A stretch of DNA of 64,000 nt, taken from NCBI GenBank assembly GCA_000143165.1, contig CP002084.1:558001-622000 (forward strand), in the 5' to 3' direction. The notes below the pieces were generated by a model. The model had not been told where the DNA came from and did no database searches. It saw only the letters and a program-made list of their open reading frames with translations. The stretch is from Dehalogenimonas lykanthroporepellens BL-DC-9. GTDB taxonomy: Bacteria; Chloroflexota; Dehalococcoidia; Dehalococcoidales; Dehalococcoidaceae. Both the position numbers and the translations under genes were made by a program. Positions 20,479-48,744 of this stretch are shown piece after piece (the first letter of the stretch is position 1; each line of letters starts with the position of its first letter).

Positions 20479-21851
20479 AGTAGAATCCCCGTACGTGGTG
20501 TAAATTCCTGGAATTGAAAAAGCAGGCCATTGTGTGGTTTCTTGAAAGAAAATAACAACAAAGACTTTCAGGAGGTAACCACAACAATGGCCAAAGACAG
20601 GATGACACTTTTGGAACTGCTACGCAAGTCAGGAAGCGACGGTGATCTTGATTTTCTGAGAGAAGGGGTGAAAATGCTGGCCGAAGCGGTCATGGAGCTT
20701 GAGGTTAAGCAGAAGACCGGAGCTGAGAAACATGAGCGCAGTGACGGTCGTTTAACCTACCGTAACGGCTACCGGGGGCGTATCTGGGACACCCGGGCCG
20801 GCACGATACCCTTGGCGATTCCCCGGTTGCGGGACGGCAGTTATTTCCCCAGCTTGCTCGAGCCCCGGCGCCGGGCGGAACATGCCTTGCTGGCGGTAAT
20901 CCAGGAAGCCTATGTTTGGGCATCAGCACCCGCAAGGTGGAATCTCTGGTTCAGTCACTGGGTCTTAACGGGGTCAGTAAGAGCGAGGTATCGCGAATAT
21001 GCGGGGCTCTGGACGATGAAGTGGAACGATGGCGTCACCGGCCTTTGTTATGGCGTTATCCCTATCTGTGGCTGGATGCGACCTACGTCAAGGTCAGGGA
21101 TTAGGGCGGGTGGTCAGTCAGGCGGTAATTATCGCCTACGGAGTCCGTGAAACCGGAGAACGCGAGATCATCGGGCTTGAGGTCGGCCCCAGTGAAGACG
21201 GTGTATTCTGGAAAGAGTTTCTGCGGGGGCTGGTCAGCCGTGGTTTGAGCGGGGTGATGCTGGTAATCAGTGATGCTCATCTGGGGCTGAAGGAAGCCAT
21301 CAGCACGGTACTCACCGGGGTATCGTGGCAACGTTGCCGGGTGCACTTCATGCGCAATGCGCTGGCCAGAGTGCCACGGGGCGCCCAGGCTATGGTATCT
21401 GCCGCTATCCGTACCATCTTCGCTCAACCTGACCGCGACAGCGCTTGCAGCCAGCTCCGCCGGGTAGCCGATAACCTCAGACTCCGATTCGGTCCTGTTG
21501 CCGACCAACTGGAAGAGGCAGAACCGGATATCCTGGCCTATACCGCTTTCCCCCGGGAACACTGGCGGCAACTGTACTCTACCAATCCCCTGGAGAGACT
21601 GAATAAGGAAATCAAGCGCCGCAGTAATGTGGTCGGCATCTTTCCCAACAGCCAATCGGTAATCAGGCTGATTGGGGCGGTGTTAATGGAACAGCAGGAC
21701 GAGTGGGAGGTCGGACGACGCTACTTTTCTTTGGATTCGATGAAGAAAACGCTGGAAGGGGCGCAGGAGGAACCCCTGATCATGGCTTTACCAGCTTGAT
21801 TATTCGGGAAACCACCAATGATGAATTTACACCACTTGACGGGACACTACC
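20479..21851 (+). mobile_element. IS256-family element, copy 1 (nested in ISL3)
   Basis: About 1373 bp. Imperfect inverted repeats of about 28 bp share GTAG, TCCC and GTGGTGTAAATTC (left 20480-20507, right 21823-21850). Flanking direct repeat TCCGCGTC (20471-20478 and 21852-21859) is the target duplication. It is nearly identical to copy 2 near 53-54 kb but carries a broken transposase gene. Confidence 0.93.
20587..21799 (+). pseudogene. IS256-family transposase, two frameshifts
   Basis: Compared with the intact copy at 52986-54200, this copy lacks one A near 20915 (TATGTTTGGG instead of TATGTATTGGG) and one C near 21104 (GGATTAGGGC instead of GGATTCAGGGC). The reading frame is therefore split into three pieces. 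The rest, including AGGAGGT before the ATG at 20587 and the final MALPA, is intact, so the decay is recent. Copy 2 could act on its ends in trans. Confidence 0.94.
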
Positions 21852-23047
21852 TCCGCGTCTTGGTAATTTGTTGCTAAAATTCTTAGTTTGAAGTTTTCGG
21901 CATTACGATATCCATATGCCAGCCTCTTGAGTGTTTTTATCCGGTTGTTCTTACCTTCGACGAAGGCATTGGTAATACGAAAGTCGAAATAGTTCAGGAT
22001 CTCATGTCGCCATACATTCATGGTGCATAGTAGCTTTTGAAACTCAGGGTATGGCCCGCTGTTAATTTTGTCTTCCAACTCCTTCAGCTTGTACTCAGCC
22101 TCGCCTCTGTTTTTACATTGATACCAGTTTTTGAAAGCCTCTTTAAGTTGCCAGGCTTTCTCTATTTCCGGATAATGTAAAAATAATTCGGCTAAGGTGG
22201 CTTTTTCCCGTTCTGTCAGTTTATCTTCGCTTTTGAGCAGGGCATACCGGTTCTGGTAAAGCCGTCGTCTTATACCCGTGTTCCCTCGGCCGCCTTGAAG
22301 ACGGCTGCGTGTCTTTTCCAGGGCTTGATTGATATGCCAGACAAAGTGGTACTTGTCTACTACGATTCTGGCCTGCGGCAGGCATAACTGAACTGCCTGC
22401 CTGAATGGCTCGTGCATATCCATGGCAACCGCCCTGACCCTTTCGGGATCGCTCAGACTGTTCAGGTATACTTCAAGATTCTTCTTCCCTTTCCCCTCCA
22501 TTACCCCGAGTATTTTCCGGCTTTGTAAATCACACACTGTGGTGTTATAGACATGGCGTTTCTTGACCGAAAACTCATCCACCCCCAGTATTTCAGGGGG
22601 TAATATCGACCCCTCTTCTGCCAACAATCTGCCAATTTCCTCAGTTACACACCTCCTGACCAGCCCTTCACCGACCTGTTCGATTAACGCCACTCTTCTG
22701 ACTGTTTGATGTAGCGCTGTCTGTCCCATGTAAGACCGCAATCGTTGTGTGGAGCGCCTGCGTGACCCAAATACTTCATCAGGCTCAGTAAATACTTTCT
22801 GGCACCACAGACACCTGAAACGCCTTTTATACAGCTTTAACCAGACTGGCTTGTCTCTCACTTTCCTGTCCTGCTTCCATTGCCAGCTGTAATCATGCGG
22901 TTTCTTTGTCGTCTGACCGCACCGCGGGCAGTCCACGGCCTTTCGCCGATATTTGACACTCACGATAATTTGCCCGGGCATTTCCTTTTGCTCCAGGATT
23001 TCCAATTGTGGCAATCCAAGACTGATTTCGATACAATCATTTGGCAT
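21827..23047 (-). CDS. ISL3-family transposase with rewritten C-terminus
   Basis: A 406-aa transposase with an N-terminal zinc ribbon (CPRCGQTTKK and FRCLWCQKVF), helix-turn-helix, and DDE-type core (LGVDEFSVKKRHVY, AVAMDMHEPFRQAV, NAFVEGKNNRIKTLKR). The nested IS256-type element entered within the last codons: the original tail read QDAEAVSR then stop, and now reads QDAEVVSRQVV with a stop inside the newcomer. Only about four residues changed, so the enzyme may still work. The ATG at 23047 lies inside the right end of the element. Confidence 0.92.
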   Translation of the reverse strand: MPNDCIEISLGLPQLEILEQKEMPGQIIVSVKYRRKAVDCPRCGQTTKKPHDYSWQWKQDRKVRDKPVWLKLYKRRFRCLWCQKVFTEPDEVFGSRRRSTQRLRSYMGQTALHQTVRRVALIEQVGEGLVRRCVTEEIGRLLAEEGSILPPEILGVDEFSVKKRHVYNTTVCDLQSRKILGVMEGKGKKNLEVYLNSLSDPERVRAVAMDMHEPFRQAVQLCLPQARIVVDKYHFVWHINQALEKTRSRLQGGRGNTGIRRRLYQNRYALLKSEDKLTEREKATLAELFLHYPEIEKAWQLKEAFKNWYQCKNRGEAEYKLKELEDKINSGPYPEFQKLLCTMNVWRHEILNYFDFRITNAFVEGKNNRIKTLKRLAYGYRNAENFKLRILATNYQDAEVVSRQVV

Positions 23048-23252: not shown

Positions 23253-24284
23253 TTGAAAACTGCCGATTTTAACTACCACCTGCCGGAAAATCTGATTGCC
23301 CAGACGCCGGCTGAGCCTCGTGACAGCTCACGACTGCTGGTTCTTAACCGGGATACCGGAAGCATCGAACACCGGCGGTTCCGTGACATCATCGATTACC
23401 TGGAGCCTGGCGATGCGCTGGTATTTAACGACAGCCGGGTGATACCGGCGCGGCTTTACGGTCATAAATTTGGGACCGGCGCCAAAATAGAGGCGCTGTT
23501 ACTGACCCGGAAGGCCGGAAATGAATGGCAGGCGTTGCTGAAACCGTCGAAGAAACTCAGCCCTGGTACGAAAGTGGAACTTCACGACCAATCCGGCCAG
23601 GACAGCGGAGTGACATTTGAGGTGCTGTCAAAAAGCGAAGACGGCATAGCCGACATCCGAATATCTGACGAAAACAGATTGCAGGACCTGGGTATTCTGG
23701 CTCTGCCGCCGTACATTCATCACCGGTTGGATGAACCGGAGCGCTATCAGACGGTTTATTCCCGTATCAACGGCAGTGTGGCGGCGCCGACCGCCGGCCT
23801 GCATTTCACCCCGGAACTGCTGAAAACCATCGAGTCCAAAGGAATTAAACTGTTATTCGTGACGCTCCACATCGGGCTGGATACTTTCCGACCGGTCAAG
23901 GAAGAGAATCCCGCCAATCATCCTATCCACAGAGAATTCGCCATCCTGACTAAAGAAACGGCAGAAGCCATCAATGAAGTTAAAGCCAAAGGCGGCAGGG
24001 TGTACGGGGTGGGGACTTCCGCGGTACGGACGCTGGAATGGGCGGCAAAGAATTACGGCCTGCCTTTACAGCCGTTCGAAGGCTGGGTAGAGTTGTTCAT
24101 TCTGCCCGGATTTGAATACCGGGTTATCGACCGCCTGATTACCAACTTCCATCTGCCGTGCGGCACGCCGCTGATGCTGACGGCGGCCTTCGCCGGGTGG
24201 GATAATGTTAAGAGGGCTTATGAAGCGGCAGTTGTCGAAGAGTACCGGTTTTTCAGCTTCGGGGATAGTATGGTAGTGGTGTGA
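23253..24284 (+). CDS. queA: S-adenosylmethionine:tRNA ribosyltransferase-isomerase
   Basis: Adds the cyclopentene precursor ring from SAM to 7-aminomethyl-deazaguanine in tRNA (queuosine pathway). Clear family sequence: ADFNYHLPENLIAQTPAEPR, SRLLVLNRDTGSIEHRRF, FNDSRVIPARLYG, SVAAPTAGLHFTPELL and ITNFHLPCGTPLMLTAAFAG. Length 343 aa is normal. The start is TTG at 23253, since MKTADF is the family N-terminus and no ATG fits. A TATAAT box at 23239-23244 lies only about 8 nt ahead, so the mRNA would be nearly leaderless. It is the last GC-rich gene before the composition drop. Confidence 0.95.
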   Translation: MKTADFNYHLPENLIAQTPAEPRDSSRLLVLNRDTGSIEHRRFRDIIDYLEPGDALVFNDSRVIPARLYGHKFGTGAKIEALLLTRKAGNEWQALLKPSKKLSPGTKVELHDQSGQDSGVTFEVLSKSEDGIADIRISDENRLQDLGILALPPYIHHRLDEPERYQTVYSRINGSVAAPTAGLHFTPELLKTIESKGIKLLFVTLHIGLDTFRPVKEENPANHPIHREFAILTKETAEAINEVKAKGGRVYGVGTSAVRTLEWAAKNYGLPLQPFEGWVELFILPGFEYRVIDRLITNFHLPCGTPLMLTAAFAGWDNVKRAYEAAVVEEYRFFSFGDSMVVV

Positions 24285-24402
24285 GAGCGGAGAAGGGTGA
24301 GGCGCAATATTCATATTTACTGACTACTTGAGGGGAGCCAAACTGAAGTTGCTGACTGATTGCCTAGCTTAATCGTGTTATAATCAACAATCAATAAGAA
24401 CA

Positions 24403-24545
24403 ATGATAACTCAAACATTATTAAACAACAACGCGGTAGATGAAGCTTCCGTGGGAAAAAAGACGATAAATTTCAGATTTGGAGAGTTGTTCTGTGGCCA
24501 TGGGGGTTTGGCACTTGGTGCGATATCTTCAATAGCTGAAAACGG
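24403..24545 (+). pseudogene. Remnant of a DNA cytosine-5 methyltransferase gene
   Basis: About 47 codons survive from an ATG at 24403. The stretch FRFGELFCGHGGLALGA is motif I (the SAM-binding FxGxGG) of C5-cytosine methyltransferases, near the N-terminus as expected. All later motifs, including the catalytic PC, are gone; the frame runs into transposase-derived sequence. A TATAAT box about 27 nt upstream suggests its old promoter. It is a relic of a restriction-modification or solitary methyltransferase gene. Confidence 0.8.
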
Positions 24546-24785
24546 CCCAATGGCTATCCGGAGAGGTTTAACCGTACCATTCGGGCACAGTTTGCCCATT
24601 ACCATACCGACAGCATGGATGAGCCGTCTGATTTTAACCGACCGCTTATGGAGTACCTGATTTGGTACAACTCCGAAAAAGTCCATCGGAGTATTAGCAA
24701 AATACCCCCGCTACGCTATTATCTGGATAAATTCATCACTGACCCCGAAAAGTTCCATATGTATTGTACTCTTACATATCGTTGA
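24546..24785 (+). pseudogene. C-terminal remnant of an integrase-type (IS481/IS3-like) transposase
   Basis: In a frame different from the methyltransferase relic, the strand encodes PNGYPERFNRTIRAQFAHY, then LIWYNSEKVHRSISKIPPLR and a stop after LTYR. NGYPERFN and WYNxxxVHxS are the end of the retroviral-integrase core (third catalytic Glu and C-terminal helix). The N-terminal two thirds are missing. It abuts the methyltransferase remnant, marking a deletion or recombination joint. Confidence 0.8.
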
Positions 24786-24804
24786 TACCGAATAGGCATT
24801 AACC

Positions 24805-24810
24805 TATAAT
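24805..24810 (+). promoter_or_regulatory. -10 box of lysS
   Basis: TATAAT, with transcription expected near 24817 and a leader of about 24 nt containing AAGG. The matching -35 box is weak. Confidence 0.5.
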
Positions 24811-24840
24811 GAGAAAAAATAAATCCAAGGTATTTGTCTA

Positions 24841-26322
24841 ATGTCATTTGACTCGTCAGGAATTTTTACTGAACGCCTAGAAAAAGTCGCGAATTTAAAA
24901 AACGCAGGCATAAACCCCTACCCCAATACATTCCACCGAACCCATACTAACCTTGAAGCGTTAGATACGCTGATAAAAGCTGAAAAAGATGGCAAGGAAC
25001 CGGGGGTGGTTACAGTTGCCGGCCGTGTTGTATCTCGTAGAGACATGGGCAAACTGTGCTTTCTGGATATTCGCGACAGTAGTCAAAAAATCCAATTATT
25101 CTGTAGTGCCAAAAACCTATCCGAATCCAGTATTTTCTCATTGAAGAACCTCGATATCGGCGACTTTGTTGGGGCCACAGGGCAATTAATCCGTACCCGA
25201 AGCGGTGAGCCGTCTGTGAATACTTCTAACCTAGTCATAATCAATAAATCATTACAGCCTCTGCCCGAAAAATGGCACGGATTGCAGGACACGGAAAAAC
25301 GGCATCGCCAAAGATATCTGGACCTTATATCAAACCCTGAAGGCAGAAACATCTTCATTACCCGTTGTTCGATCATTTCAGGGATACGTAATTTCCTCAA
25401 TAATAATGGTTTTCTGGAAGTCGAAACCCCGGTTCTCCAATCTCAGGCTTGTGGAGCAGCCGCCCGACCTTTTGTGACCTACCACAATGCCCTGGACCAA
25501 AGTATGTATCTCAGAATTGCTCTGGAGTTGTATTTAAAAAGATTGCTAGTTGGGGGGTTTGATGGTGTTTACGAAATAGGGCGTATTTTTCGAAATGAAG
25601 GAATTTCCGTCAAGCACAATCCAGAATTCACGATGCTTGAGTGTTATAAGGCGTATGCTGACTACAATGACATGATGGACTTGACTGAGAAAATGGTCAG
25701 CGGAATTGTCGAGCAGATTTATGGTGGGTACCAAGCACCCTATGGTGATATTACCCTTGATTTCACTCCACCCTGGCCGAGATTAGATTTTCGAACGTTA
25801 CTCCTTGAAAAATCCGGGGTAGATTTTTTGGCTTATTCAGATGCTGATGGATTAAGAAATAAAATGATTGAATCAGGATTAGAAGCTGATGTTGCCAAAG
25901 ATAAAGGGCAACTGATAGACGAACTTGTTGCGCAATTCATTGAACCGAATCTCGTACAACCTTGTTTTCTCATTGACTATCCTATTGAATTATCTCCTTT
26001 AGCAAAAACCAAACCCGGAGAATCTGGAATTGTTGAGAGATTTGAGGCGTTTGCACACGGTATGGAAATCGCAAACGCATTCTCGGAGCTGAATGACCCA
26101 CAAGAGCAATATCTTCGTTTCGCCCAACAGCTGGAAGGCGAAACTCAAAGTCAAACCGATGATACAGAAACTATAGACCGCGATTTCATCACGGCTCTGG
26201 AATACGGGATGCCGCCTACCGGCGGCCTCGGAATCGGTATCGACCGTCTGGTCATGCTCTTGACCAACCAGAAATCCATCCGGGAAGTGATCCTGTTTCC
26301 CACACTTAAAACCAAGGAGTAA
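24841..26322 (+). CDS. lysS: Class II lysyl-tRNA synthetase
   Basis: Charges tRNA-Lys. The N-terminal OB-fold anticodon domain includes TVAGRVVSRRDMGKLCFLDI; the catalytic core has class-II motif 2 (RIFRNEGISVKHNPEFTMLE) and motif 3 (GGLGIGIDRLVMLLT). Length 493 aa is normal. It is the first AT-richer gene after the 24.4-24.8 kb relics and is followed by serS after 4 nt, so the two form an operon. Confidence 0.96.
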   Translation: MSFDSSGIFTERLEKVANLKNAGINPYPNTFHRTHTNLEALDTLIKAEKDGKEPGVVTVAGRVVSRRDMGKLCFLDIRDSSQKIQLFCSAKNLSESSIFSLKNLDIGDFVGATGQLIRTRSGEPSVNTSNLVIINKSLQPLPEKWHGLQDTEKRHRQRYLDLISNPEGRNIFITRCSIISGIRNFLNNNGFLEVETPVLQSQACGAAARPFVTYHNALDQSMYLRIALELYLKRLLVGGFDGVYEIGRIFRNEGISVKHNPEFTMLECYKAYADYNDMMDLTEKMVSGIVEQIYGGYQAPYGDITLDFTPPWPRLDFRTLLLEKSGVDFLAYSDADGLRNKMIESGLEADVAKDKGQLIDELVAQFIEPNLVQPCFLIDYPIELSPLAKTKPGESGIVERFEAFAHGMEIANAFSELNDPQEQYLRFAQQLEGETQSQTDDTETIDRDFITALEYGMPPTGGLGIGIDRLVMLLTNQKSIREVILFPTLKTKE

Positions 26323-26326
26323 CTCA

Positions 26327-27568
26327 ATGCTAGATTTGAAACTATTCAGAGAAAATCCCGAAGTAATCAAGAAAGCCATGAATGACCGTCAGGCAAAAGC
26401 TCCTATTGAGGAAATAATCACCGCTGATGACGAAAGGAAGGTCATATCGCAATCGCTGGATGAATTGAGACGCCAAAAGAAAACGTTGTCCAAGTCCGGC
26501 CCGATAGTCCCTGAAAAAGGCCGGATAGTCAGGGAAAAAATATCCGAACTTGAGGAACGTTTACGTGATATTGAAGGTTGCTTGAAAGATCTTCTATTAC
26601 AGGTACCAAATATTCCTCAGCCCAGCGTACCGTATGGGACCGGAGAAGCCGATAATGTTGTAAGAAGATATTACGGCGAAAAACGGGAGTTTGAATTTAC
26701 ACCCAAAAGTCATTGGGAATTGGGAGAACAACTTGATATTATTGATTTTGAAAGAGGCGTTAAAATATCCGGCTCGCGTTTTTATGTTTTGAAAAACGCC
26801 GGTGCCAGGTTACAAAGATCATTGATTTCACTTTTCCTTGATATTCATACTCGACAGCATGGTTATTCAGAAATGTATCTCCCTTTTATGGTTAAACAGG
26901 AATCACTGTTTGGATCAGGCAACCTACCTAAATTCGCTGACAATCTTTATAGAGACGCCAATGATGATCTTTGGATGGTACCCACTGCCGAAGTCCCGTT
27001 GACCAATTTACATAGAGACGAAATCCTGGCATCAAGCGAACTCCCAAAGCACTACTGCGCTTATACTGCCTGTTTCAGGCGAGAAAAAATGAGTGCCGGC
27101 AAAGATACCAGAGGTATCAAACGCGGTCACCAATTCGACAAAGTCGAACTATATAAATTTACTACTCCGGAAAGTTCTAATCAGGAATTAGAGAAGCTTT
27201 TGAATGATGCGGAAGCTATAGCGAAAGCTTTGGAGTTGCCTTACCGCATTGTAGAATTGTGTACTGGAGATATTGGGTTCGCTTCAAGTAAAAGTTACGA
27301 TATAGAAATCTGGGCTCCGGGTGTTGGCGAATGGCTTGAAGTGAGTTCGTGCTCTAACTGTCTTGATTTCCAGGCCAGGCGGGCTAACATCAGATACAGG
27401 CGGGAAGACAACAATAAAGTTGAATACGTCCACACTCTCAACGGCTCCGGTTTGGCCCTACCCAGGGTTGTGATAGCCGTTTTAGAGAATTACCAGGAAT
27501 CTGATGGTTCGATCACCATACCAGCCGCACTCAAGCCGTATATGGGAACCGATCGAATAACCGTATGA
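26327..27568 (+). CDS. serS: Seryl-tRNA synthetase
   Basis: Charges tRNA-Ser and tRNA-Sec-type substrates. The N-terminal coiled-coil arm (about residues 30-100) is followed by class-II motifs: VPTAEVPLTNLHRDE, FRREKMSAGKDTRGIKRGHQ (motif 2 region) and LNGSGLALPRVVIAVLENYQ (motif 3). Length 413 aa is normal. AAGGAG precedes the ATG. A short CACC/GGTG hairpin with T-run around 27590-27606 may terminate the pair. Confidence 0.96.
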   Translation: MLDLKLFRENPEVIKKAMNDRQAKAPIEEIITADDERKVISQSLDELRRQKKTLSKSGPIVPEKGRIVREKISELEERLRDIEGCLKDLLLQVPNIPQPSVPYGTGEADNVVRRYYGEKREFEFTPKSHWELGEQLDIIDFERGVKISGSRFYVLKNAGARLQRSLISLFLDIHTRQHGYSEMYLPFMVKQESLFGSGNLPKFADNLYRDANDDLWMVPTAEVPLTNLHRDEILASSELPKHYCAYTACFRREKMSAGKDTRGIKRGHQFDKVELYKFTTPESSNQELEKLLNDAEAIAKALELPYRIVELCTGDIGFASSKSYDIEIWAPGVGEWLEVSSCSNCLDFQARRANIRYRREDNNKVEYVHTLNGSGLALPRVVIAVLENYQESDGSITIPAALKPYMGTDRITV

Positions 27569-27629
27569 CCGATATACAGTCAATTTTTCACCAACAACAG
27601 GTGTTTTAACTGATTATTTTCTAGCATAG

Positions 27630-27705
27630 TGGAGCGGGCGACGAGACTCGAACTCGCGACAACCTGCTTGGAAGGCAGGCACTCTACCAACTGAGTTACA
27701 CCCGC
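27630..27705 (-). tRNA. tRNA-Gly (TCC)
   Basis: On the minus strand a 76-nt cloverleaf with acceptor GCGGGTG/CGCCCGC, T-arm GAGTTCGAGTC, anticodon loop CTTCCAA (anticodon TCC) and encoded CCA. Confidence 0.95.
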
Positions 27706-27762
27706 AGAAGCACAAATATTTTAAACACGCGAACCTCTCCTGTCAAAGTTTCGCGACTATTA

Positions 27763-29244
27763 TTAAAGCTTATCTTTAATCAAGCTCAATTTATTTTCAA
27801 AACCTGGTAAAAGCTTCAGCCCTATTCTCACAAAAGGGTTTCCAGCCATGTAGTCTACATACGCCATATCTCCCAGACGTTTTAACACCCCCTCACCGTA
27901 TGTAGGATAGGCATGACTGATTCCATGCAAATATTTCAGAGGCTTTCCTGTAACACTCAGTAGGAATAACTCATGTATTAACTCCTCTGACCGCTCGCCC
28001 CACAGATGAGCTCCAATAATCTTGCCATTATTACGACATATTATTTTAGCCAAGCCGAAAGCCTGTCTTTCCATTTTGGCTCGCCTTAATCTGCTATAAT
28101 CGTACCTGTAAACAGTTATCTTATTTTTTCCGTATCTATTTTCGGCCTCTTTTTCCGTCATACCAAAACGGGCCATTGGTGGTTCCGTATAGATCACTGA
28201 TACCACTTCACCTAATTTACGTTCTGGATTAATCACAGGGACCAAGGCGTTACCTGCCGCAATAAGCGCCTGTCTTTCGACCATTGAAGCGTTGAAAGTC
28301 ATACCTGTCACATCGCCTGCGGCGAATATATTGCGACGACTAGTTCTCAACGATGGATTGACGGTTATTCCTCTAACAGAATATTTAACCCCGGCATTTT
28401 CAAGGTTCAACGACTCAATATCAGGCGTTCGGCCTATAGTAATCAATGCTTTTTCGGCAATATAAGTGTGAGTGGCCTTATCAGTCTGGTCAACGGCTAT
28501 CACCTTGACCTGATTATCAGCACATTCAATATGGCTGATTTTACATCCCGTTACAACCTCCATCCCTAGTCTGGTAACATATTCCTGAAATTTGACAACA
28601 ATTTCTTGATCTTCTCGATTCAGAATATCTTTTGAGGCTTCCAATATGGTAACTTCAAGACCCAACAACCGAAGTGCCAAACCCAATTCTACACCTGCTG
28701 GGCCACCACCAATAACAATCATCGATGCAGGAAGTTTGGACAATTTGAATAGTCCGTCAATACTCAGTACATTCGAATGTTCCGCGCCCGTAATATTTAT
28801 CTTTGCCTGTTTACTACCGGTAGCAATAATAAACTTTTTGGATGTATAGATACGATCACCGACTTTTATTTGTCGTTGGTTCAAAAACTCGGCCGGCCCA
28901 AGGATGGTATCGATACCTATGGAATTGAAGCTTTCAGGGCTATCGATTTTATTTACTTCTTCGATCACATTTCGAATATAAGGAAATACCTGGTCACCTG
29001 AATATCCGGATAACTCATAAACCAAGCCATAATCTTTTGCGCGCTTTAAGCTATTGGCCAATACACTGGATCTAATCAAAGATTTGGTCGGCATACAGGT
29101 CTTTAGAGTGCAACTACCACCAATTCGCTCTTTTTCGACCAACAACACTTTTTTCCCCAACCCGTTTGCGAAACTGGCTGAGGCCAAACCGGCGATTCCA
29201 CCACCGATAATTATTATATCATAACAAGCTTCGTTATTATTCAT
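27763..29244 (-). CDS. MerA/lipoamide-dehydrogenase-like FAD disulfide oxidoreductase
   Basis: A 493-aa flavoprotein of the pyridine-nucleotide-disulfide family. FAD site IIIIGGGIAGLASASFA, redox pair in GGSCTLKTCMPTKS, NAD(P) site VIGGGPAGVELGLALRLLG, and FAAGDVTG are all present. The C-terminal dimer domain has SHAYPTYGEG, where lipoamide dehydrogenase would have HAHPT; Tyr at this place is seen in mercuric-reductase-like groups. The Cys pair used by MerA at its extreme C-terminus is absent, so mercury reduction is unlikely and the substrate is unknown. It lies alone between two tRNA genes. Confidence 0.85.
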   Translation of the reverse strand: MNNNEACYDIIIIGGGIAGLASASFANGLGKKVLLVEKERIGGSCTLKTCMPTKSLIRSSVLANSLKRAKDYGLVYELSGYSGDQVFPYIRNVIEEVNKIDSPESFNSIGIDTILGPAEFLNQRQIKVGDRIYTSKKFIIATGSKQAKINITGAEHSNVLSIDGLFKLSKLPASMIVIGGGPAGVELGLALRLLGLEVTILEASKDILNREDQEIVVKFQEYVTRLGMEVVTGCKISHIECADNQVKVIAVDQTDKATHTYIAEKALITIGRTPDIESLNLENAGVKYSVRGITVNPSLRTSRRNIFAAGDVTGMTFNASMVERQALIAAGNALVPVINPERKLGEVVSVIYTEPPMARFGMTEKEAENRYGKNKITVYRYDYSRLRRAKMERQAFGLAKIICRNNGKIIGAHLWGERSEELIHELFLLSVTGKPLKYLHGISHAYPTYGEGVLKRLGDMAYVDYMAGNPFVRIGLKLLPGFENKLSLIKDKL

Positions 29245-29336
29245 GTTTCAGCTATTAATTCCAATTCAATAAATCAAGAAGTCAAGTGGAAGGCGATTTA
29301 TCCAAGTTATTCAATATCACTGATACTAACGTATTC

Positions 29337-29413
29337 TGGTCGGGGTGAGAGGATTCGAACCTCCGGCCTCAGCGTCCCAAACGCTGCGCGCTAGCCAACT
29401 GCGCCACACCCCG
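29337..29413 (-). tRNA. tRNA-Pro (TGG)
   Basis: Minus-strand 77-nt cloverleaf, acceptor CGGGGTG/CACCCCG, anticodon loop TTTGGGA (anticodon TGG), T-arm GGTTCGAATCC, encoded CCA. Confidence 0.95.
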
Positions 29414-29440
29414 AAATTCTATCCGGACAACAAGCGGAGT

Positions 29441-30172
29441 TCAATGACGACAATCGGGGCAATTATTGAATTCAGAAACCGACAAGCCGCTCTTTAGCGC
29501 TATATATTCCAATTGTTTCACAGGAGCGTAATGCACACCACATGATTCACATTGCTGCATTTTAAAATCAGCTTTGCTATTAGGCCAGATCATTGTGCGG
29601 ATTTCCTTGGTATCTTTCATTTGTATCGCTTTTGTCGGACAAATATACGAACAGGCCCCACAGGCAATACAATCATTGGTTTCATCATAGAAGGGTAAGG
29701 CCACTTCTCTTCTTGTTCCTCGGTTTACCAAGCTAATCGCATCAACCCCGACTACTTCGGCACACACTCGGTTACACAGCCCACAAAGTATACAATTATC
29801 ATTTGAAGTTTCTGTTACATCTCTGAAACGCGATGCCTCAATTCCATACTTGGTAGCAAGTTCCTTAATATCATTGGAATCGGGAGCTCGAGCCAGCAAC
29901 AATTCGATAATTGTTTTCCGTACCTTGATAACACGCTCTGAATCAGTAGCGACTTTAAGTCCTTCTTCGATTGGATAAAGGCAGGCGGTTACTAACCTTT
30001 TTCGATTTCTTTTTTCAACCTCTACCAAACAAACACGGCATGCCCCATAGTCAGATACGGCGTGCGAATGACATAGTGTCGGTATATCAATGCCGGCCTT
30101 TTGTGCAATATTCAACAGTGTCTGGCCGGAAGCGCCTGAAAATTCTCTCCCATTTATTGTTAGCGTAACCAT
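29441..30172 (-). CDS. Short NuoG/HoxU-like iron-sulfur subunit of a diaphorase
   Basis: A 243-aa electron-transfer subunit. The N-terminal [2Fe-2S] domain uses Cys in IPTLCHSHAVSDYGACRVC and VTAC; the His-Cys3 cluster of full NuoG is not seen. Two [4Fe-4S] sites follow (CILCGLCNRVC and CIACGACSYICP). An added C-terminal Cys pair set (CESCGVHYAP and NNCPDC) could hold another metal. The large NuoG/hydrogenase catalytic domain is absent, so it matches HoxU-type subunits. It is the last gene of the por-nuo operon, 6 nt after nuoF. Confidence 0.88.
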   Translation of the reverse strand: MVTLTINGREFSGASGQTLLNIAQKAGIDIPTLCHSHAVSDYGACRVCLVEVEKRNRKRLVTACLYPIEEGLKVATDSERVIKVRKTIIELLLARAPDSNDIKELATKYGIEASRFRDVTETSNDNCILCGLCNRVCAEVVGVDAISLVNRGTRREVALPFYDETNDCIACGACSYICPTKAIQMKDTKEIRTMIWPNSKADFKMQQCESCGVHYAPVKQLEYIALKSGLSVSEFNNCPDCRH

Positions 30173-30178
30173 AATACT

Positions 30179-32053
30179 TTATTTGACCTCCACCGCATTC
30201 AGACGACATATATCGTAACAAGCACCGCACTTGGTGCATTTATCCTGATCCAGTTTGACCGGTTGCTTCTTGCCTTGAAAGCTGATGGCATCAGCTGGGC
30301 ACTCTTTGATACATAAGCTACAGCCATTGCAGTTTGCTTCGACAATATAATAGCGAATCAAAGGTTTACAGACACCGGCTGGACACCTTTTTTCCTGGAT
30401 GTGAGCTACGTATTCGTCTTTAAAATGTCGAATAGTGGACAGTACGGGATTACCTGCAGATCCACCTAATCCACAGAGAGCCCCCATTGTTAATGATTCT
30501 GATAAGTCAATAAGTAATTCTATATCTTCATCCTGCCCTTTGCCTTCGATTATTCGATCAAGAATTTGTCTCATTCTTTTCAATCCTTCACGGCAAGGGA
30601 CACATTTTCCGCAAGACTCTTCCTCCAGGAACGACAAAAAGTATCTGGCGATATCCACCATGCAATTGTCTTCATCCATGACGATCATCGCGCCCGACCC
30701 CATCATGGATCCTGCTCTGGACAGTTCGTCGAAATCTACAGACAAATCCAGTTTTTCTTCGGGTAAACATCCACCTGACGGCCCCCCCGTTTGTACCGCC
30801 TTGAATTTCTTTCCACCCGGAATACCTCCGCCAATCTCATATATGATTTCTCGAAGCGTAATTCCCATTGGAACTTCGATCAATCCCGTATTATGTACTT
30901 TACCAACTAAAGAAAATATCTTGGTACCTTTACTGTTCCCCGTTCCTATCCCATAGAACCACTCGGCACCCTTGTTGATTATTAAGGGAATATTTGCCAG
31001 AGTCTCAACATTGTTCAATAAAGTCGGACGTTCCCAAAGCCCTTTTTCAGAAGTATGAATATAGTTCGCTCTTGGTTCGCCTGTCCGGCCTTCGATAGAA
31101 GCCATCAGCGCGGTGGATTCACCGCAAACAAATGCGCCACCTCCGCGACTTATTTTGATTGAAAAATCGAATCCGGTACCCAGAATGTTTTTTCCAAGTA
31201 ATCCTTTCTCTTCAGCCTTTTTAATTGCTATTTCTGAATTTTTCAGTGCAACGGGATATTCATTCCTTATATAAATATATCCTTGACGAGCACCAACAGC
31301 GTATGCGGCGATAACCATTCCCTCGATAATTGAGTGGGGATTACCCTCCATAAGAGAACGATCCATAAAAGCCCCGGGGTCACCTTCATCACAATTACAG
31401 ATCACATATTTCAGCTCGCCAGGTGCCTCGCGGGTAATCTCCCACTTAGCCCCTGTTGCGAATCCACCCCCACCTCTGCCTCTAAGTCCGGATATTTTAA
31501 TTTCATCCACAACTTCATCGGGAGACATTGATGATAGTACTTTATTTAATGCTTGATATCCACCGGCCTGTATATAATCATCTAAACTGGTGGGATCAAT
31601 ATACCCATTGGTACCAAAGACCAATCTCAATTGTTTTTTATAAAAAGGAACATCTTCCTCACAGCGAACCTTTTCATTTGTAGACGGAATTGTATACAGT
31701 AAGTCATCAAGTATCAGATCATTACGAATGGTCTCCGTAACAATGCGAGATACATCTTCCGGTTTTACTCTCTGGTATAAAATGTTTTCCGGACGAATTA
31801 CAACTAACGGCCCTCTCTCGCAAAACCCCTGACAACCGGTGAATTTAACAGAAACAGTCCCTTCCAATCCTTGGTTCTTTATTTCATCTTTGAAAGACTG
31901 CCCGATTTTGGAAGCGCCATATGCCAGACATCCTGTTCCACAGCAAATTGTAATTACCTTGTTTTCGGTCTTTTTTGCCTGTAAATTAGCTCTGTAAGAC
32001 TCCAAATCAGCATAATCTGTCAATCTGCATGTTTCCATTTCTATATTAACCAT
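30179..32053 (-). CDS. NuoF/HymB-like NADH-binding diaphorase subunit
   Basis: A 624-aa protein with four parts: an N-terminal thioredoxin-like [2Fe-2S] domain (CCGTGCLAYGASKIG, FTGCQGFCERGP); the NADH/FMN domain (GLRGRGGGGFATGAKWE, FVCGESTALMASIEG); the SLBB and [4Fe-4S] part (EESCGKCVPCREG); and a C-terminal two-cluster ferredoxin (CNGCSLCIKECPAD, CTKCGACYDIC). This layout is that of NuoF subunits in bifurcating or NAD-linked hydrogenases. It should move electrons between NAD(H) and the iron-sulfur chain. No hydrogenase catalytic subunit is nearby. Confidence 0.92.
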   Translation of the reverse strand: MVNIEMETCRLTDYADLESYRANLQAKKTENKVITICCGTGCLAYGASKIGQSFKDEIKNQGLEGTVSVKFTGCQGFCERGPLVVIRPENILYQRVKPEDVSRIVTETIRNDLILDDLLYTIPSTNEKVRCEEDVPFYKKQLRLVFGTNGYIDPTSLDDYIQAGGYQALNKVLSSMSPDEVVDEIKISGLRGRGGGGFATGAKWEITREAPGELKYVICNCDEGDPGAFMDRSLMEGNPHSIIEGMVIAAYAVGARQGYIYIRNEYPVALKNSEIAIKKAEEKGLLGKNILGTGFDFSIKISRGGGAFVCGESTALMASIEGRTGEPRANYIHTSEKGLWERPTLLNNVETLANIPLIINKGAEWFYGIGTGNSKGTKIFSLVGKVHNTGLIEVPMGITLREIIYEIGGGIPGGKKFKAVQTGGPSGGCLPEEKLDLSVDFDELSRAGSMMGSGAMIVMDEDNCMVDIARYFLSFLEEESCGKCVPCREGLKRMRQILDRIIEGKGQDEDIELLIDLSESLTMGALCGLGGSAGNPVLSTIRHFKDEYVAHIQEKRCPAGVCKPLIRYYIVEANCNGCSLCIKECPADAISFQGKKQPVKLDQDKCTKCGACYDICRLNAVEVK

Positions 32054-32054
32054 A

Positions 32055-32525
32055 TCAGTTACATTTCTCCAGAATTGTTTTGACCTTATCCGTGGTCATT
32101 TGCCCGACGAACTCGTTGTCAACAACCACAACAGGGCCTAAAGCGCAGGCGCCAACACAATTAGCAGTTTCAATTGTATATTTCATATCTTTCGTAGTCT
32201 CACCAGCACACACACACAACTCTGTTTCGATTTTATCGAGAACTTTTTCGGCGCCCCTCACATGGCAGGCGGTACCCATGCAAACCTTCAGATTATGCTT
32301 GCCTCTGGGCTTTAAACTAAAAGCCCTGAAGAAAGTTGCTACGCTATAAACACGAGTCAATGGAATATCGAGTTTTTCAGCTATACGAACAATTGATTCT
32401 CGAGGCAGAAAATAAAGTTGTGCTTGAACATCCTGCAACATCGCTACCAGCATGCTCGGGTCGCCATTATGCTTTACAACCACTTCATCGACGATATTAT
32501 AGATGGAATCTTTATTTACAGACAT
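32055..32525 (-). CDS. NuoE/HymA-like [2Fe-2S] subunit
   Basis: A 156-aa subunit with the four-cysteine [2Fe-2S] site of NuoE: CMGTACHVRGA and ANCVGACALGPVVVV. The N-terminal helical part includes VATFFRAFSLKPRGKH. It starts inside the last codons of porB (10-nt overlap) and ends 1 nt before nuoF, so por and nuo genes are made together. Confidence 0.93.
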   Translation of the reverse strand: MSVNKDSIYNIVDEVVVKHNGDPSMLVAMLQDVQAQLYFLPRESIVRIAEKLDIPLTRVYSVATFFRAFSLKPRGKHNLKVCMGTACHVRGAEKVLDKIETELCVCAGETTKDMKYTIETANCVGACALGPVVVVDNEFVGQMTTDKVKTILEKCN

Positions 32526-33442
32526 TTGGCCTTCTCCACCAGTCTATTGAATTCTTCGACGAGCCGAGCCTCAATCCCAGTAATTTCGTCTGGTTTCAAA
32601 TGTCGGAATCTTCGTTGTAGACTTGTGTACTCACTTAACGGCTTTAATTTTTCAGGAACCAGACTCATTTTATATTTCCCATTTTCAACTTCATACAATG
32701 GGTACGCCCCAGTTTCAACAGCTAATCTCCCTAATTTGACACTGATATCGGTATCACAACGCCAACCGGTAGGACATGCAGAATAAACTTGTATATAAGC
32801 CGGGCCCTTAACAGATAGTCCTTTCTTGACCTTTTCAATAAGATCAAAAGGATAGCTGTGCGAAGCAGTCGCAACATATGGAATATTGTGCGCCACTGCA
32901 ATTTCCGGCATATTCTTTTTCCACGAAGTCTGGCCGGATTGTGCTTTTCCAGCGGGGGAAGTTGTCGTTGACGCACCAAACGGAGTGGCTGACGAACGCT
33001 GTTTGCCTGTATTCATATATGCTTCATTATCGAAACATATGTAAAGGAAGTTATGCCCCCTTTCAAGCGCTCCGGACAAAGCCTGAAGTCCGATATCGAA
33101 AGTGCCACCATCACCGGCGATAGCCACAACATTTATATCTTCTTGAGGGATCTTTCCTTTTCTCATTTGTGCCTTGAGGCCAACTTCAACCCCAGAAGCC
33201 ACAGCAGCAGCATTTTCAAACAGCGTGTGTATCCAAGGCAGTTCCCAAGATGTATAAGGCAACTGTGAAGCTACAATTTCCATGCATCCGGTGGCATTTA
33301 CGACAATGGTATTTGGCCCAAAAGCCTTCGCCGCCAATCTTACAGCCAAAGCTTCGCCACAACCAATGCAAGCACGGTGTCCAGGTGCAAACGGTTCGGC
33401 CTTATCTACCAACCTCGAGGCATATATACTCAGATTTTGCAT
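32516..33442 (-). CDS. porB: Pyruvate (2-oxoacid):ferredoxin oxidoreductase, beta subunit
   Basis: The thiamine-diphosphate subunit. ACIGCGEALAVRLA carries the conserved Cys pair, and IAGDGGTFDIGLQ with NEAYMNTGKQRS is the ThDP/Mg2+ motif typical of pyruvate rather than oxoglutarate enzymes. Length 308 aa is usual. Its ATG overlaps the porA stop (TAATG). The enzyme splits pyruvate to acetyl-CoA and CO2, or runs in reverse for CO2 fixation. Confidence 0.94.
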   Translation of the reverse strand: MQNLSIYASRLVDKAEPFAPGHRACIGCGEALAVRLAAKAFGPNTIVVNATGCMEIVASQLPYTSWELPWIHTLFENAAAVASGVEVGLKAQMRKGKIPQEDINVVAIAGDGGTFDIGLQALSGALERGHNFLYICFDNEAYMNTGKQRSSATPFGASTTTSPAGKAQSGQTSWKKNMPEIAVAHNIPYVATASHSYPFDLIEKVKKGLSVKGPAYIQVYSACPTGWRCDTDISVKLGRLAVETGAYPLYEVENGKYKMSLVPEKLKPLSEYTSLQRRFRHLKPDEITGIEARLVEEFNRLVEKAKCL

Positions 33443-34614
33443 TATTCTCTGACCCCTACCATCTGAAACTCGATACCGTTATATTCATTCCGGTCACTTA
33501 TGCCGTCTTTTATCAGGTCTTCGAACCCTTCTACGGTAATATCCCTGCCACCAAGGCCGCCGATATAGCTCTTAACAGTCGGTTTTTCTTTTTCGGTATA
33601 CATAGCCGATTTGATTTCGGAAGCTACCGTCCCTGAAGCTCCGGGCGAAATACTTCGGTCCAGGACAATAACGTTTTCTACGCCTTTCAGAACTGCTCTC
33701 AATTCTTCAAAAGGGAAAGGACGCCATAAGCGAATTCTAATCAGACCGATATCCTCGCCTTTTTCCCTAAGATTATCGACGGCTGTCATGGCGGTTTCGG
33801 AATAACTACCCATGGTCACAAGAACATTCTTTACGCCTTCACATTTATAACACTCGACCGGCTTATAGGTCCTGCCAAATTTAACAGCGAATTCATCCCA
33901 TATCTCATTTATTACCTTTTTAACCCCCAGCATGGCTTTCTCCTGAGCCCATTTGGCTTCAGTAAATACCACCGGTGGCGCAAAATCTCCCATGGCAATC
34001 GGTTTGGAAGGATGTAGGGTGAATGGATTTGTATTAGCCGGCAAATACTCGCAGACTTTTTTCTCATCCGGCATTTCAATAGGTTCGATTACATGCGACA
34101 GGTGAAACCCGTCCAAATGGACCATCACAGGGAATAACACATCATGGTGTTCCGCAATCTTAAAAGCACAGATAGTTTGGTCTACCACTTCTTGTCCATT
34201 TTCAGTAAAAATCTGGATCCATCCGGTATCCCTTACCGCCATGGCATCAGAATGATCTCCCCATACAGACAACGGAGCTGATAAGGCACGGTTAACAACA
34301 GCCATGACAATTGGTAAACGCATTCCGGAAGCGACATATAGCACTTCATGCATCAATTCCAAACCCTGGCCTGCGGTAGCCGTAAATGTACGGGCGCCCG
34401 CGGCCGCAGAGCCTAAACAGGCACTCATTGCTGAATGTTCAGATTCTACAGGTACGTATTCAGCATCAAGTTCTCCTTGAGCAACCAATTCTGCAAGATG
34501 TTCCACAATATGAGTTTGTGGGGTTATGGGATAAGCGGCAATGACATCCGGATTTACCATTTTGACGGCATCACCTAAGGCAATCGATACTTCAACACCA
34601 ACACGTTTGGACAT
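33442..34614 (-). CDS. porA: Pyruvate:ferredoxin oxidoreductase, alpha subunit
   Basis: A 390-aa subunit: MSKRVGVEVSIALGDAVKMV, IAAYPITPQTHIVEHLAE, SEHSAMSACLGSAAAGARTF and LDRSISPGASG are family sequence. ATG 34614 is chosen; it overlaps the porD stop (TAATG) and follows GGAGG. A start 45 nt earlier would run back into porD without homology. Confidence 0.94.
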   Translation of the reverse strand: MSKRVGVEVSIALGDAVKMVNPDVIAAYPITPQTHIVEHLAELVAQGELDAEYVPVESEHSAMSACLGSAAAGARTFTATAGQGLELMHEVLYVASGMRLPIVMAVVNRALSAPLSVWGDHSDAMAVRDTGWIQIFTENGQEVVDQTICAFKIAEHHDVLFPVMVHLDGFHLSHVIEPIEMPDEKKVCEYLPANTNPFTLHPSKPIAMGDFAPPVVFTEAKWAQEKAMLGVKKVINEIWDEFAVKFGRTYKPVECYKCEGVKNVLVTMGSYSETAMTAVDNLREKGEDIGLIRIRLWRPFPFEELRAVLKGVENVIVLDRSISPGASGTVASEIKSAMYTEKEKPTVKSYIGGLGGRDITVEGFEDLIKDGISDRNEYNGIEFQMVGVRE

Positions 34615-34910
34615 TATTTTTCTGTTTCCTCCCGCATGGTAATTACTCTGGTAGGGCATTCATAGGCACAAATACCGCAACCTTTACAATAGTAGAAATC
34701 TGCCTCGAAAAATCCAGCTTTATTCTGATGAATACACGCTTCCGGACAGAAAATGTAACATACTCCACATTTTATGCACCTTTTAAAGTCATAATCGGGT
34801 TTTTGAGATCGCCAATCTCCGGTTTTATAAATCGCGGCGTTTCCCGGTTCGGTGACCACAGCCCCTATCTCAATGTCTTTCCAGGTCAGTTCATGCTCTG
34901 CTTTAGCCAA
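34614..34910 (-). CDS. porD: Pyruvate:ferredoxin oxidoreductase, delta (ferredoxin) subunit
   Basis: A 98-aa protein with two [4Fe-4S] motifs (CIKCGVCYIFCPEAC and CKGCGICAYECPTRV), which wires the catalytic cluster to soluble ferredoxin. TEPGNAAIYKTGDWRSQKP is the usual N-terminal segment. It lies 2 nt after porG. Confidence 0.94.
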   Translation of the reverse strand: MAKAEHELTWKDIEIGAVVTEPGNAAIYKTGDWRSQKPDYDFKRCIKCGVCYIFCPEACIHQNKAGFFEADFYYCKGCGICAYECPTRVITMREETEK

Positions 34911-34912
34911 TG

Positions 34913-35512
34913 TTATTCAAGCTCCTTTATCCTGGTTTCCTCAAAAGCTCTTTTCATTGCGTTGAGATTCTTAGCCGCAATTTTCCCGAATCTATGATTG
35001 ACAGGTTCAGTCATAGATTCTATATCGATAATCCCCATGGCTTTGATAAGAGCCCCAAGCATGGTGGTATTGACTATTGTCACTCCCAACTCTTCACGGG
35101 CAATGGTATTGGCATCTATTACAGCGACTCGCCATTTTTTATTCAATTCCGAGTAACTATCTACGCTTTTGGATGTATTAATCACCAATATCCCGCCATC
35201 TTTCAGACCTGAAGTAACCCGGGCAATTTCTATCAAACTGGCATCCAGAACAATAACCGCGTCCGGATTAGTAATACCGGCACGGTTCCTTATAGGTTTA
35301 TTCATACTTATCCGGTTGAAAGCCATTACAGGAGCACCACGTCGCTCAGGCCCAAAACTCGGAAATCCCTGCGCAAATTTCCCTTCGCTAATAGCCGCTT
35401 GCGCAATCAACTCGGCTGACGTGACTGCACCCTGGCCACCTCTTCCATGCCATCGGAGTTCAGCAAGTTCGCTTTTGATAGTAGCCCCTCCCTGAATGTA
35501 TTTGTAAATCAT
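34913..35512 (-). CDS. porG: Pyruvate:ferredoxin oxidoreductase, gamma subunit
   Basis: Family core LRWHGRGGQGAVTSAELIAQA and FPSFGPERRGAPVMAFNR. The only ATG in frame near the core is at 35512, and its A is the discriminator base of the tRNA-Arg gene just upstream. Translation would begin directly at the processed tRNA end, without a leader. A good ribosome site, GGGAGGGG, lies about ten codons downstream, before an ATC codon (residue 12), so a rare non-AUG start there is possible. Protein identity is secure; the start is not. It is the first gene of porGDAB-nuoEFG. Confidence 0.9.
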   Translation of the reverse strand: MIYKYIQGGATIKSELAELRWHGRGGQGAVTSAELIAQAAISEGKFAQGFPSFGPERRGAPVMAFNRISMNKPIRNRAGITNPDAVIVLDASLIEIARVTSGLKDGGILVINTSKSVDSYSELNKKWRVAVIDANTIAREELGVTIVNTTMLGALIKAMGIIDIESMTEPVNHRFGKIAAKNLNAMKRAFEETRIKELE

Positions 35513-35584
35513 GCCCCTGGAGCGACTCGAACGCTCGCTCCCAGCTTCGGAGGCTGGTGCTCTATCCACCTGAGCTACAGGGGC
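35512..35584 (-). tRNA. tRNA-Arg (CCG)
   Basis: Minus-strand cloverleaf, acceptor GCCCCTG/CAGGGGC, D-arm GCTCAGGTGGATAGAGC, anticodon loop CTCCGAA (anticodon CCG), T-arm GCGTTCGAGTCGC. No CCA is encoded. The last base abuts or overlaps the porG ATG. Confidence 0.94.
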
Positions 35585-35827
35585 GAGTGGATGAGAGATT
35601 ATTCTATCCCATGGGACGTTCTTTTGACAAGAAAATAGCTTTAACGAGACTATTAGACTCTCTGGTGGAAGGTGTTTCTATCTTCATCATGAAAAGGGGT
35701 TTCAATAACGAAGGGTAAATCAGAGTGGTCACCAGGCTAACAACTGAGGTTGACCCCATCATTTAGACAGAATCGGGGCAAGATTAAGGTGGGAAACCGA
35801 CTCAGTTGACTGGGATTTTACCATACC

Positions 35828-36358
35828 TCACTCTACCAGTTCTCCCGGCAAACGCGGCAGGAAGCCCTTTCTCCGGGTTTTCTTAATGGCTTTGCGTGAT
35901 GCTTTCTCATGTAGCCGGCCGGTTCTGCCATTGATAGTGAGCTTTCCCCCTCTGGGTAACCGTCCCTGTTTCTTGAGATCCCCAATGATTCTGCCGACGG
36001 TTGATTCTGAAGGCGGTTTAATGCCTTTAGCCTCACAGGCGGCTTTGAGCACCGGGGTTATGGTCACCTTGTCCACCCCGGGATGTCTGGTGCGGTAATC
36101 CAGGATGAACCCCGAGATAAAGGGGTCAGGTCGGCGCTTTCGCCGGCTCCTGGGTGCCTTATCCCCTGGAGCCAGGCTGGAGAGCCGACCGCCTGAGTTA
36201 TTGAGCTTCTGCTTCCAGCGGTAAACGGTGGACCGGCTCTAGCCGAAGGCTTTCCTGGCAGCTTCTGCGCCATACTCATCGAAGAACTCGATGATTTTTA
36301 TCCTTTGCTCAATTTCCCTGGACCTGGGGTGAGAGAGGATATCGTTGATCTTCTGCAT
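35828..36358 (-). pseudogene. N-terminal remnant of an IS481-like transposase
   Basis: On the minus strand from ATG 36358 the frame reads MQKINDILSHPRSREIEQR and GAEAARKAFG, then a TAG in place of one codon, then SRSTVYRWKQKLNNSGGRLS, a helix-turn-helix. It continues through FILDYRTRHPGVDKVTITPVL and ends LPRLPGELVE with a stop exactly where integrase-type transposases enter the first catalytic Asp (PGELVQxD). So it has an internal stop and no catalytic core. The 35585-35827 stretch beyond holds no gene but contains an imperfect inverted repeat around CAACTGAG/CTCAGTTG. Confidence 0.85.
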
Positions 36359-36499
36359 CCAACGACTATAGCCTCTGCGGTAATAGCTTGCTACATATAT
36401 CTGCTTCACTATACAGACTCCCTGCTATCACCTCCCCCGAAGTCCCACATGTTTCTGAACCTTTGCACGACATAGTTCAGTGTCTAAACTTTCTAGCTT

Positions 36500-36529
36500 G
36501 CCGGGTATCGCACAATAGTGATACAATTT
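36500..36529 (+). promoter_or_regulatory. Promoter of the fmdB-type gene
   Basis: TTGCCG near 36500, an 18-nt spacer and TACAAT near 36524-36529. The leader is about 25 nt and includes TTGGAGG as ribosome site for the ATG at 36562. Confidence 0.65.
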
Positions 36530-36561
36530 TAACGTTAAAAGCAACCTTGGAGGATTGAGAA

Positions 36562-37239: not shown

Positions 37240-37248
37240 CGGGCTACC

Positions 37249-37324
37249 GGGCTCGTAGCTCAGTGGTCAGAGCGGGCGGCTCATAACCGCTTGGTCGCAG
37301 GTTCGAAACCTGCCGAGCCCACCA
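37249..37324 (+). tRNA. tRNA with CAT anticodon, probably tRNA-Ile2
   Basis: 76 nt with encoded CCA, acceptor GGGCTCG/CGAGCCC, anticodon loop CTCATAA. The anticodon stem and variable region (GGCTCATAACCGCTTGGTCGC) resemble bacterial minor tRNA-Ile (CAU, converted to lysidine) more than elongator Met, so Ile2 is preferred; Met cannot be excluded by eye. Confidence 0.85.
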
Positions 37325-37337
37325 AAGATAACTAAGA

Positions 37338-37375
37338 AAAGAAAAAGCGTGTCAATTTAACATGCTCTTTTCTTT
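37338..37375. terminator. Bidirectional terminator between tRNA and mfd
   Basis: AGCGTGT (37346-37352) pairs with ACATGCT (37360-37366) with one wobble, extended by A-rich and T-rich arms on the two sides. It can end both the tRNA transcript (+) and mfd (-). The mfd stop codon lies in it. Confidence 0.75.
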
Positions 37376-40803: not shown

Positions 40804-40853
40804 TTGGTTGGATAAAACCTGGATACTGGTAAAATAAAATCAATAAATATCAT

Positions 40854-42855: not shown

Positions 42856-42860
42856 TACGT

Positions 42861-44219: not shown

Positions 44220-44231
44220 CGAATTAACCCC

Positions 44232-44684: not shown

Positions 44685-44691
44685 ATTTACC

Positions 44692-46633: not shown

Positions 46634-46656
46634 TACGAATGACCTTTCTAAATGAT

Positions 46657-48653: not shown

Positions 48654-48706
48654 GTGTTTAATTATATAACAAGAAGTGGTAACGAACCATATCCTCCTTG
48701 ATCGTT

Positions 48707-48735: not shown

Positions 48736-48744
48736 TGATAACCA

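What the first reader, a model, noticed from the sequence alone, without database searches (positions are those of the whole stretch)
24285..24840. Abrupt GC drop at a scar of two gene remnants
By hand count, 60-nt lines left of this point are about 55-63% GC (for example 24001-24060 is 38/60), while lines right of it are about 40-50% (26341-26400 is 25/60; 61441-61500 is 24/60). Both sides carry core genes (queA, panBCD versus lysS, dnaB, ligA), so neither is an ordinary island. The joint is a cytosine methyltransferase fragment fused to a transposase fragment. It could be a large ancient recombination, a domain of differing mutational pressure, or an assembly join.
Basis: seen in the sequence. 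Interest (0 to 1): 0.68.

Follow-up and report, generated by a model that had tools for sequence, protein, structure and literature searches.

The report
Inversion scar flips terminus GC gradient
The sudden drop in G+C is the scar of a large (about 180 kb) DNA flip around the place where chromosome copying ends, which set the A+T-rich end of a smooth composition gradient against G+C-rich DNA; the genes on both sides are native, and the case is instructive rather than exotic.

Summary
The GC step is real: 0.61 to 0.45 in 10-kb means, the sharpest in the 292 kb examined. It is not an island and probably not a misassembly. The genome is a 1,686,510-bp Dehalogenimonas, probably D. lykanthroporepellens BL-DC-9. 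Right of the joint, GC climbs from 0.43 to 0.60 over 180 kb and drops again at 762 kb. Gene order explains this. In seven congeners and a Dehalococcoides, queA adjoins the genes now at about 761 kb; in strain W the 762-613 kb block follows queA reversed. Of 10,585 possible inversions tested on composition alone, 580-762 kb smooths the profile best. Three old adjacencies are broken, and all three scars carry transposase remnants; two remnants are halves of one IS type. The inversion's midpoint lies 5 kb from a single-copy dif site. Trees of lysS, dnaB, ligA (low side) and queA (high side) agree, so both sides share ancestry. The low-GC domain is an AT-rich terminus region, also seen in strain W and WBC-2 and unusually strong here (GC3 0.42 against 0.70). 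Each part is a known phenomenon. What is useful is that the flip left the gradient unerased, giving a composition clock. Raw reads could not be checked.

The parts
20479..21852 (+). IS256-type element (transposase split in two ORFs), one of more than ten near-identical copies in the sampled genome, 2.4 kb left of the joint
   Evidence: Pfam Transposase_mut; 95-99% identical 1.38-kb copies elsewhere
21827..23047 (-). ISL3-family transposase
   Evidence: Pfam DDE_Tnp_ISL3 E=1e-72
23253..24284 (+). queA, last gene of the GC-rich side; ancestral neighbour of the genes now at about 761 kb
   Evidence: Pfam; adjacency in G001-G008
24285..24840 (.). Joint 1: inversion breakpoint scar
   Evidence: composition, gene order
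24403..24546 (+). 5' fragment resembling a C5-cytosine methyltransferase (48 aa); no relative in 40 related genomes and no PF00145 gene in this genome
   Evidence: motif by eye
24547..24788 (+). 3' half of an integrase-type (rve_3) IS, carried with lysS
   Evidence: PF13683; 91% DNA match to the right end of the copy in L058
24841..26322 (+). lysS, first gene of the AT-rich side
   Evidence: Pfam; tree
24841..35569 (.). 10.7-kb block (lysS, serS, oxidoreductase, nuo/hox-like and por genes) additionally re-oriented relative to its neighbours in strain W, WBC-2 and THU2-like genomes
35819..36467 (-). 5' half of the same IS type as the remnant at joint 1; third scar
   Evidence: 96% DNA match to L058, which holds both ends of the element in order
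36562..37239 (+). FmdB-type zinc ribbon gene, ancestral neighbour of lysS in G001, G005 and G006
24841..64000 (.). AT-rich end of the inverted segment; the ramp continues to about 762 kb (window coordinate about 204 kb, outside the window)
52933..54308 (-). IS256 copy that causes part of the local GC bump at 52-58 kb
   Evidence: NF033543

Best explanation
The step at 24.3 kb is one end of a chromosomal inversion of about 180 kb (582.3-762.4 kb), almost symmetric about the dif site in the replication terminus region. A second inversion of about 10.7 kb (lysS to por block) reused the same joint. Before the event, GC fell smoothly from about 0.60 beside queA to about 0.43 near lysS and rose again beyond, forming an AT-rich terminus domain inherited vertically in this clade. 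The flip left the AT-rich end touching the GC-rich side and the GC-rich end touching AT-rich DNA at 762 kb, so there are two opposed steps with a ramp between. Likely mechanism (inferred): breakage or recombination at or between IS elements near the converging forks, leaving decayed transposase pieces at every breakpoint. Shown: the steps, the ramp, the gene order, the scars, shared ancestry and dif symmetry. Inferred: that IS caused the breaks, that the event is recent, and that terminus-linked mutation or repair bias makes the AT-rich domain.
For: Ramp 0.43 to 0.60 between two steps. Composition-only search: of 10,585 inversions of the 292-kb profile, 580-762 kb gives the smoothest result, roughness 0.197 to 0.072. 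The queA|761-kb adjacency is kept in seven congeners and Dehalococcoides, and in strain W (G001) queA is followed by G000 762 to 613 kb reversed. All three ancestral adjacencies (queA|762, 594.5|lysS, 593.5|766) occur in G001; in G000 all three sites hold transposase remnants. The remnants beside lysS and beside its old neighbour are the two ends of one IS type. Trees: G000+G001 sisters for dnaB (100/99), ligA (98/97), lysS (88/95) and queA (98/96). Protein identity to G001 is the same in low-GC and other genes, 73.1 vs 75.4, p=0.35. dif-like motif in one copy in 14 of 15 genomes with no control hits, at 667,531 here; inversion midpoint 672.4 kb.
Against: The MTase-like fragment is unexplained. 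The two IS halves do not abut exactly; the middle of the element is missing. GC is not a simple function of distance from dif: the lowest GC lay about 85 kb to one side, and the domain is weak or absent in G003. Strain W itself has other rearrangements near the terminus, so the exact order of events is not unique. Reads were not available.
Confidence: 0.88

Rival explanations
1. Horizontal transfer: the AT-rich side is a large segment imported from a lower-GC relative, replacing resident core genes.
For: Large GC3 difference (0.42-0.52 vs 0.70) and IS remnants at the edge.
Against: Trees of lysS, dnaB and ligA match queA, with strain W as sister. Identities to strain W are equal on both sides. 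The same genes are AT-rich in strain W and WBC-2. GC is a ramp, not a plateau.
Confidence: 0.03
2. Assembly artefact: two contigs or a repeat-bounded segment were joined in the wrong orientation. A published table notes that the RefSeq record of BL-DC-9 was suppressed and the genome flagged for contamination (PMC13390414).
For: IS-rich genome with many 1.4-kb near-identical copies, one of them 2.4 kb from joint 1; suppressed record.
Against: No repeat longer than 23 bp is shared by the two joints. Joint sequences are unique, decayed fragments. Three separate scars form one coherent rearrangement. Completeness 99.99%, contamination 0.6%.
Confidence: 0.06
3. A fixed boundary of a mutational or replication domain (for example a fork barrier) at 24.3 kb, without rearrangement.
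For: Low-GC domain lies at the terminus; skew changes sign within 583-665 kb.
Against: queA and lysS are not neighbours in any of the relatives examined. dif lies 85 kb away from the step. A second, reciprocal step exists at 762 kb.
Confidence: 0.03

Closest known systems
Inversions roughly symmetric about the replication axis (terminus-centred inversions, 'X-alignments'; known from general literature, cited from memory)
   Same: Reversed gene block spanning the terminus with endpoints 85 and 95 kb from dif; IS debris at endpoints.
   Different: Recognisable from base composition alone because the GC profile was asymmetric about dif; a second small inversion reused the joint.
A+T enrichment near the replication terminus (Daubin and Perriere 2003, as cited in PMC2684129)
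   Same: Low GC3 in core genes around ter, shared by G000, G001 and G005.
   Different: Strong here (GC3 about 0.42 against 0.70) and displaced to one side of dif; weak in G003.
Pervasive rearrangement among Dehalogenimonas genomes (PMC13390414)
   Same: Low synteny between strains; WBC-2 rich in IS elements.
   Different: That paper does not analyse BL-DC-9 synteny, GC domains or terminus inversions in the passages read here.

Membership tests
Chromosomal inversion | Ancestral adjacencies in outgroups broken at both ends | tested here: met
   queA|761 kb in G001-G008; 594.5|lysS in G001, G005 and G006; 593.5|766 in G001
Chromosomal inversion | Block between breakpoints collinear but reversed in a relative | tested here: met
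   G001 1502-1657 kb equals G000 762-613 kb reversed
Terminus-symmetric inversion | Breakpoints about equidistant from dif/ter | tested here: met
   85.2 and 94.9 kb from the dif-like site
IS-mediated inversion | Homologous inverted IS copies at both ends | tested here: not met
   no shared repeat longer than 23 bp between joints; remnants of different IS only, so IS causation is inferred
AT-rich terminus domain | GC rises with distance from ter | tested here: met
   rho 0.39 in G000, 0.35 in G001, 0.42 in G005; not significant in G003
AT-rich terminus domain | Mutation spectrum biased to AT in late-replicated DNA | not testable with these tools
   needs polymorphism or mutation-accumulation data
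Genomic island / horizontal transfer | Phylogenetic conflict with the rest of the genome | tested here: not met
   identities
dif site | Single copy per chromosome, conserved, near skew sign change | tested here: met
   one copy in 14 of 15 genomes, control pattern zero; skew
dif site | Bound and recombined by XerC/XerD | not testable with these tools
   needs binding or recombination assay
Assembly chimera | Coverage break or repeat at the joint | tested here: inconclusive
   no shared repeat; coverage not available

The most novel reading that the evidence does not exclude
Dehalogenimonas chromosomes hold a steep, position-set GC equilibrium (GC3 from about 0.4 near the terminus to about 0.7 elsewhere) that genes take on when they move. 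Supporting hints are that G000 800-812 kb genes have GC3 0.64 here but 0.48 where they sit beside the AT-rich block in strain W, and that lysS is 0.43 here but 0.80 in G003. The recent 180-kb flip is then an internal clock for how fast composition re-equilibrates.
Probability: 0.4. Interest if true: 0.55.

Novelty: new member of a known kind. Interest (0 to 1): 0.36.

Why it matters
It shows that a sharp GC edge with IS scars beside core genes, often read as foreign DNA, contamination or misassembly, can be a native gradient turned around. The same test (search for the inversion that best smooths composition) can date and find rearrangements without a reference. This lineage also offers a natural experiment on whether GC3 is set by chromosomal position.

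Tried and rejected
Considered a reciprocal joint at about 1,155 kb (a low-GC stretch in L031). Rejected once gene order pointed to 762 kb and because that stretch is short and followed by ordinary GC. Searched for the rest of the methyltransferase gene in the genome and in 40 relatives: nothing. Searched for dif with E. coli and B. subtilis consensus: only weak hits; the best one proved to be the conserved order-wide motif. The simple rule 'GC depends on distance from dif' was rejected as the full account, because the pre-inversion profile is asymmetric. The antipode of dnaA correlates better only in G005. The original BL-DC-9 genome paper is not held. Literature searches for symmetric inversions and late-replicating AT bias in bacteria returned nothing usable.

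Full report
Setting. The window is 558001-622000 of a single 1,686,510-bp contig, 99.99% complete. Size and GC fit Dehalogenimonas lykanthroporepellens BL-DC-9 (1.69 Mb, 55.0%: PMC13390414; the exact length from memory). Relative G001 has exactly the length of 'Ca. D. loeffleri' strain W (1,772,240 bp; PMC11737167). G005 fits WBC-2 in size.

Observation. GC is 0.55-0.63 up to 20 kb, dips over two IS copies, and is 0.42-0.47 just after 24.3 kb. The 10-kb means on either side differ by 0.158, the largest step in the contiguous 538-830 kb. The joint holds a 48-aa piece resembling the start of a C5-cytosine methyltransferase (by motif only) fused to an integrase-type transposase end.

Shape of the low side. 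Read onward, GC does not stay low. It rises steadily (r=0.89) from 0.43 at 583 kb to 0.60 at 760 kb, then falls abruptly to 0.48 at 762 kb. Two steps of the same sense with a ramp between them is what an inverted piece of a smooth gradient looks like. Testing every inversion of the 146 two-kb bins without using gene order, the best of 10,585 was 580,001-762,001; it cut the roughness score from 0.197 to 0.072.

Gene order. In G001-G007 and in the Dehalococcoides G008 queA is followed by the genes found here at 757-761 kb. In strain W the whole 762-613 kb block follows queA, reversed. lysS adjoins the gene at 594.5 kb in G001, G005 and G006, and the 593.5-kb gene adjoins 766 kb in G001. So three ancestral adjacencies are broken in G000, which takes at least two inversions: one of about 180 kb and one of about 10.7 kb (lysS to the por genes). 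The G000 order is the derived one because outgroups share the other.

Scars. All three new junctions contain transposase debris: 24285-24840; 35819-36467 (window); and 762.0-764.1 kb, where an IS3-type orfA fragment meets a truncated gene that is itself split by a further IS. The remnant next to lysS is the right end, and the remnant next to lysS's old neighbour is the left end, of one IS type; a copy at 24-25 kb of the genome (L058) carries both ends in order. This fits an element that lay between lysS and its neighbour and was broken in the rearrangement. The middle of the element is missing, so the cut is not exact. The joints at 582 and 762 kb share no repeat over 23 bp, so neither a repeat-driven misassembly nor simple recombination between identical IS copies can be read off the present sequence.

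Ancestry. Trees of lysS, dnaB and ligA from the low side and queA from the high side all put G000 with strain W inside Dehalogenimonas; serS and rlmN were unresolved. Median protein identity to strain W is 73.1% for low-zone and 75.4% for other genes (p=0.35). The low-zone genes are also AT-rich in strain W and WBC-2. Import of foreign DNA is not supported.

Why AT-rich. GC skew is positive left of the joint, near zero at 583-665 kb and negative beyond. A motif GGTTCGCACWATATATGTTATG, found once in each of 14 of 15 Dehalococcoidales genomes and never in the reversed control, sits at 667,531 here. By its single copy, its conservation despite rearrangement and its place at the skew change it is very probably dif (no XerCD test done). 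The inversion midpoint (672.4 kb) is 5 kb from it. GC rises with distance from dif in G000, G001 and G005 (rho 0.35-0.42) but not significantly in G003. The zone is lopsided, lying mostly on the longer-arm side of dif in the pre-inversion order, which is why a nearly symmetric flip produced steps at all. Orthologue comparisons suggest that position matters: genes at 613-658 kb have GC3 0.46 here against 0.59 in strain W, and genes at 800-812 kb 0.64 here against 0.48 in strain W where they lie beside the lysS block. The cause (mutation, repair, conversion, selection) was not tested.

Timing. The steps are not blunted, and genes left of the joint (GC3 0.65-0.77) show no approach to the low-GC state, so the flip is recent compared with the time composition needs to change. 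This is inference.

Verdict. An ordinary kind of event (terminus-centred inversion with IS debris) acting on an ordinary kind of pattern (AT-rich terminus), with unusually clear footprints. No step in this work needed referral.

Noticed in passing
L218 (G000:C1:667531-667552) and homologous sites in 13 other genomes: A 22-bp motif GGTTCGCACWATATATGTTATG occurs exactly once per genome in 14 of 15 Dehalococcoidales genomes: very probably the dif site of the order. In G006 a contig ends exactly on it.
   Followed up: partly
L065, L066, L067, L068 (lysS of G002, G003, G007, G004): lysS in four congeners carries an insertion of about 95-100 aa, apparently helical, shortly before the C-terminal DFITALEYGMPPTGG motif; absent in G000, G001, G005 and G006.
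   Followed up: no
window 20479-21852 and 52933-54308; many other places in G000: IS256-type element present in more than ten 95-99% identical copies in the sampled part of the genome; the copy near the joint has its transposase split into two ORFs.
   Followed up: no
L027 12430-14130 (G000 762.4-764.1 kb): A gene fragment truncated on its left and interrupted by an IS3-type element that has an identical copy at 1,631,652-1,632,922.
   Followed up: partly
G001, GC3 change at about 1607-1611 kb (L103): In strain W GC3 jumps from about 0.42 to 0.6 within a gene run that is collinear with G000 656-663 kb, so a GC domain edge exists there without a visible rearrangement.
   Followed up: no
G000 whole genome: PMC13390414 states that the RefSeq records of BL-DC-9 and WBC-2 were suppressed and BL-DC-9 flagged for contamination; the AT-rich terminus domain might contribute to such a flag.
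   Followed up: no
dif versus dnaA in G000, G001, G003, G005, G007, G008: dif lies at 36-47% of the chromosome from dnaA on one side (G002: 69%), so replichores are consistently unequal in these genomes.
   Followed up: partly
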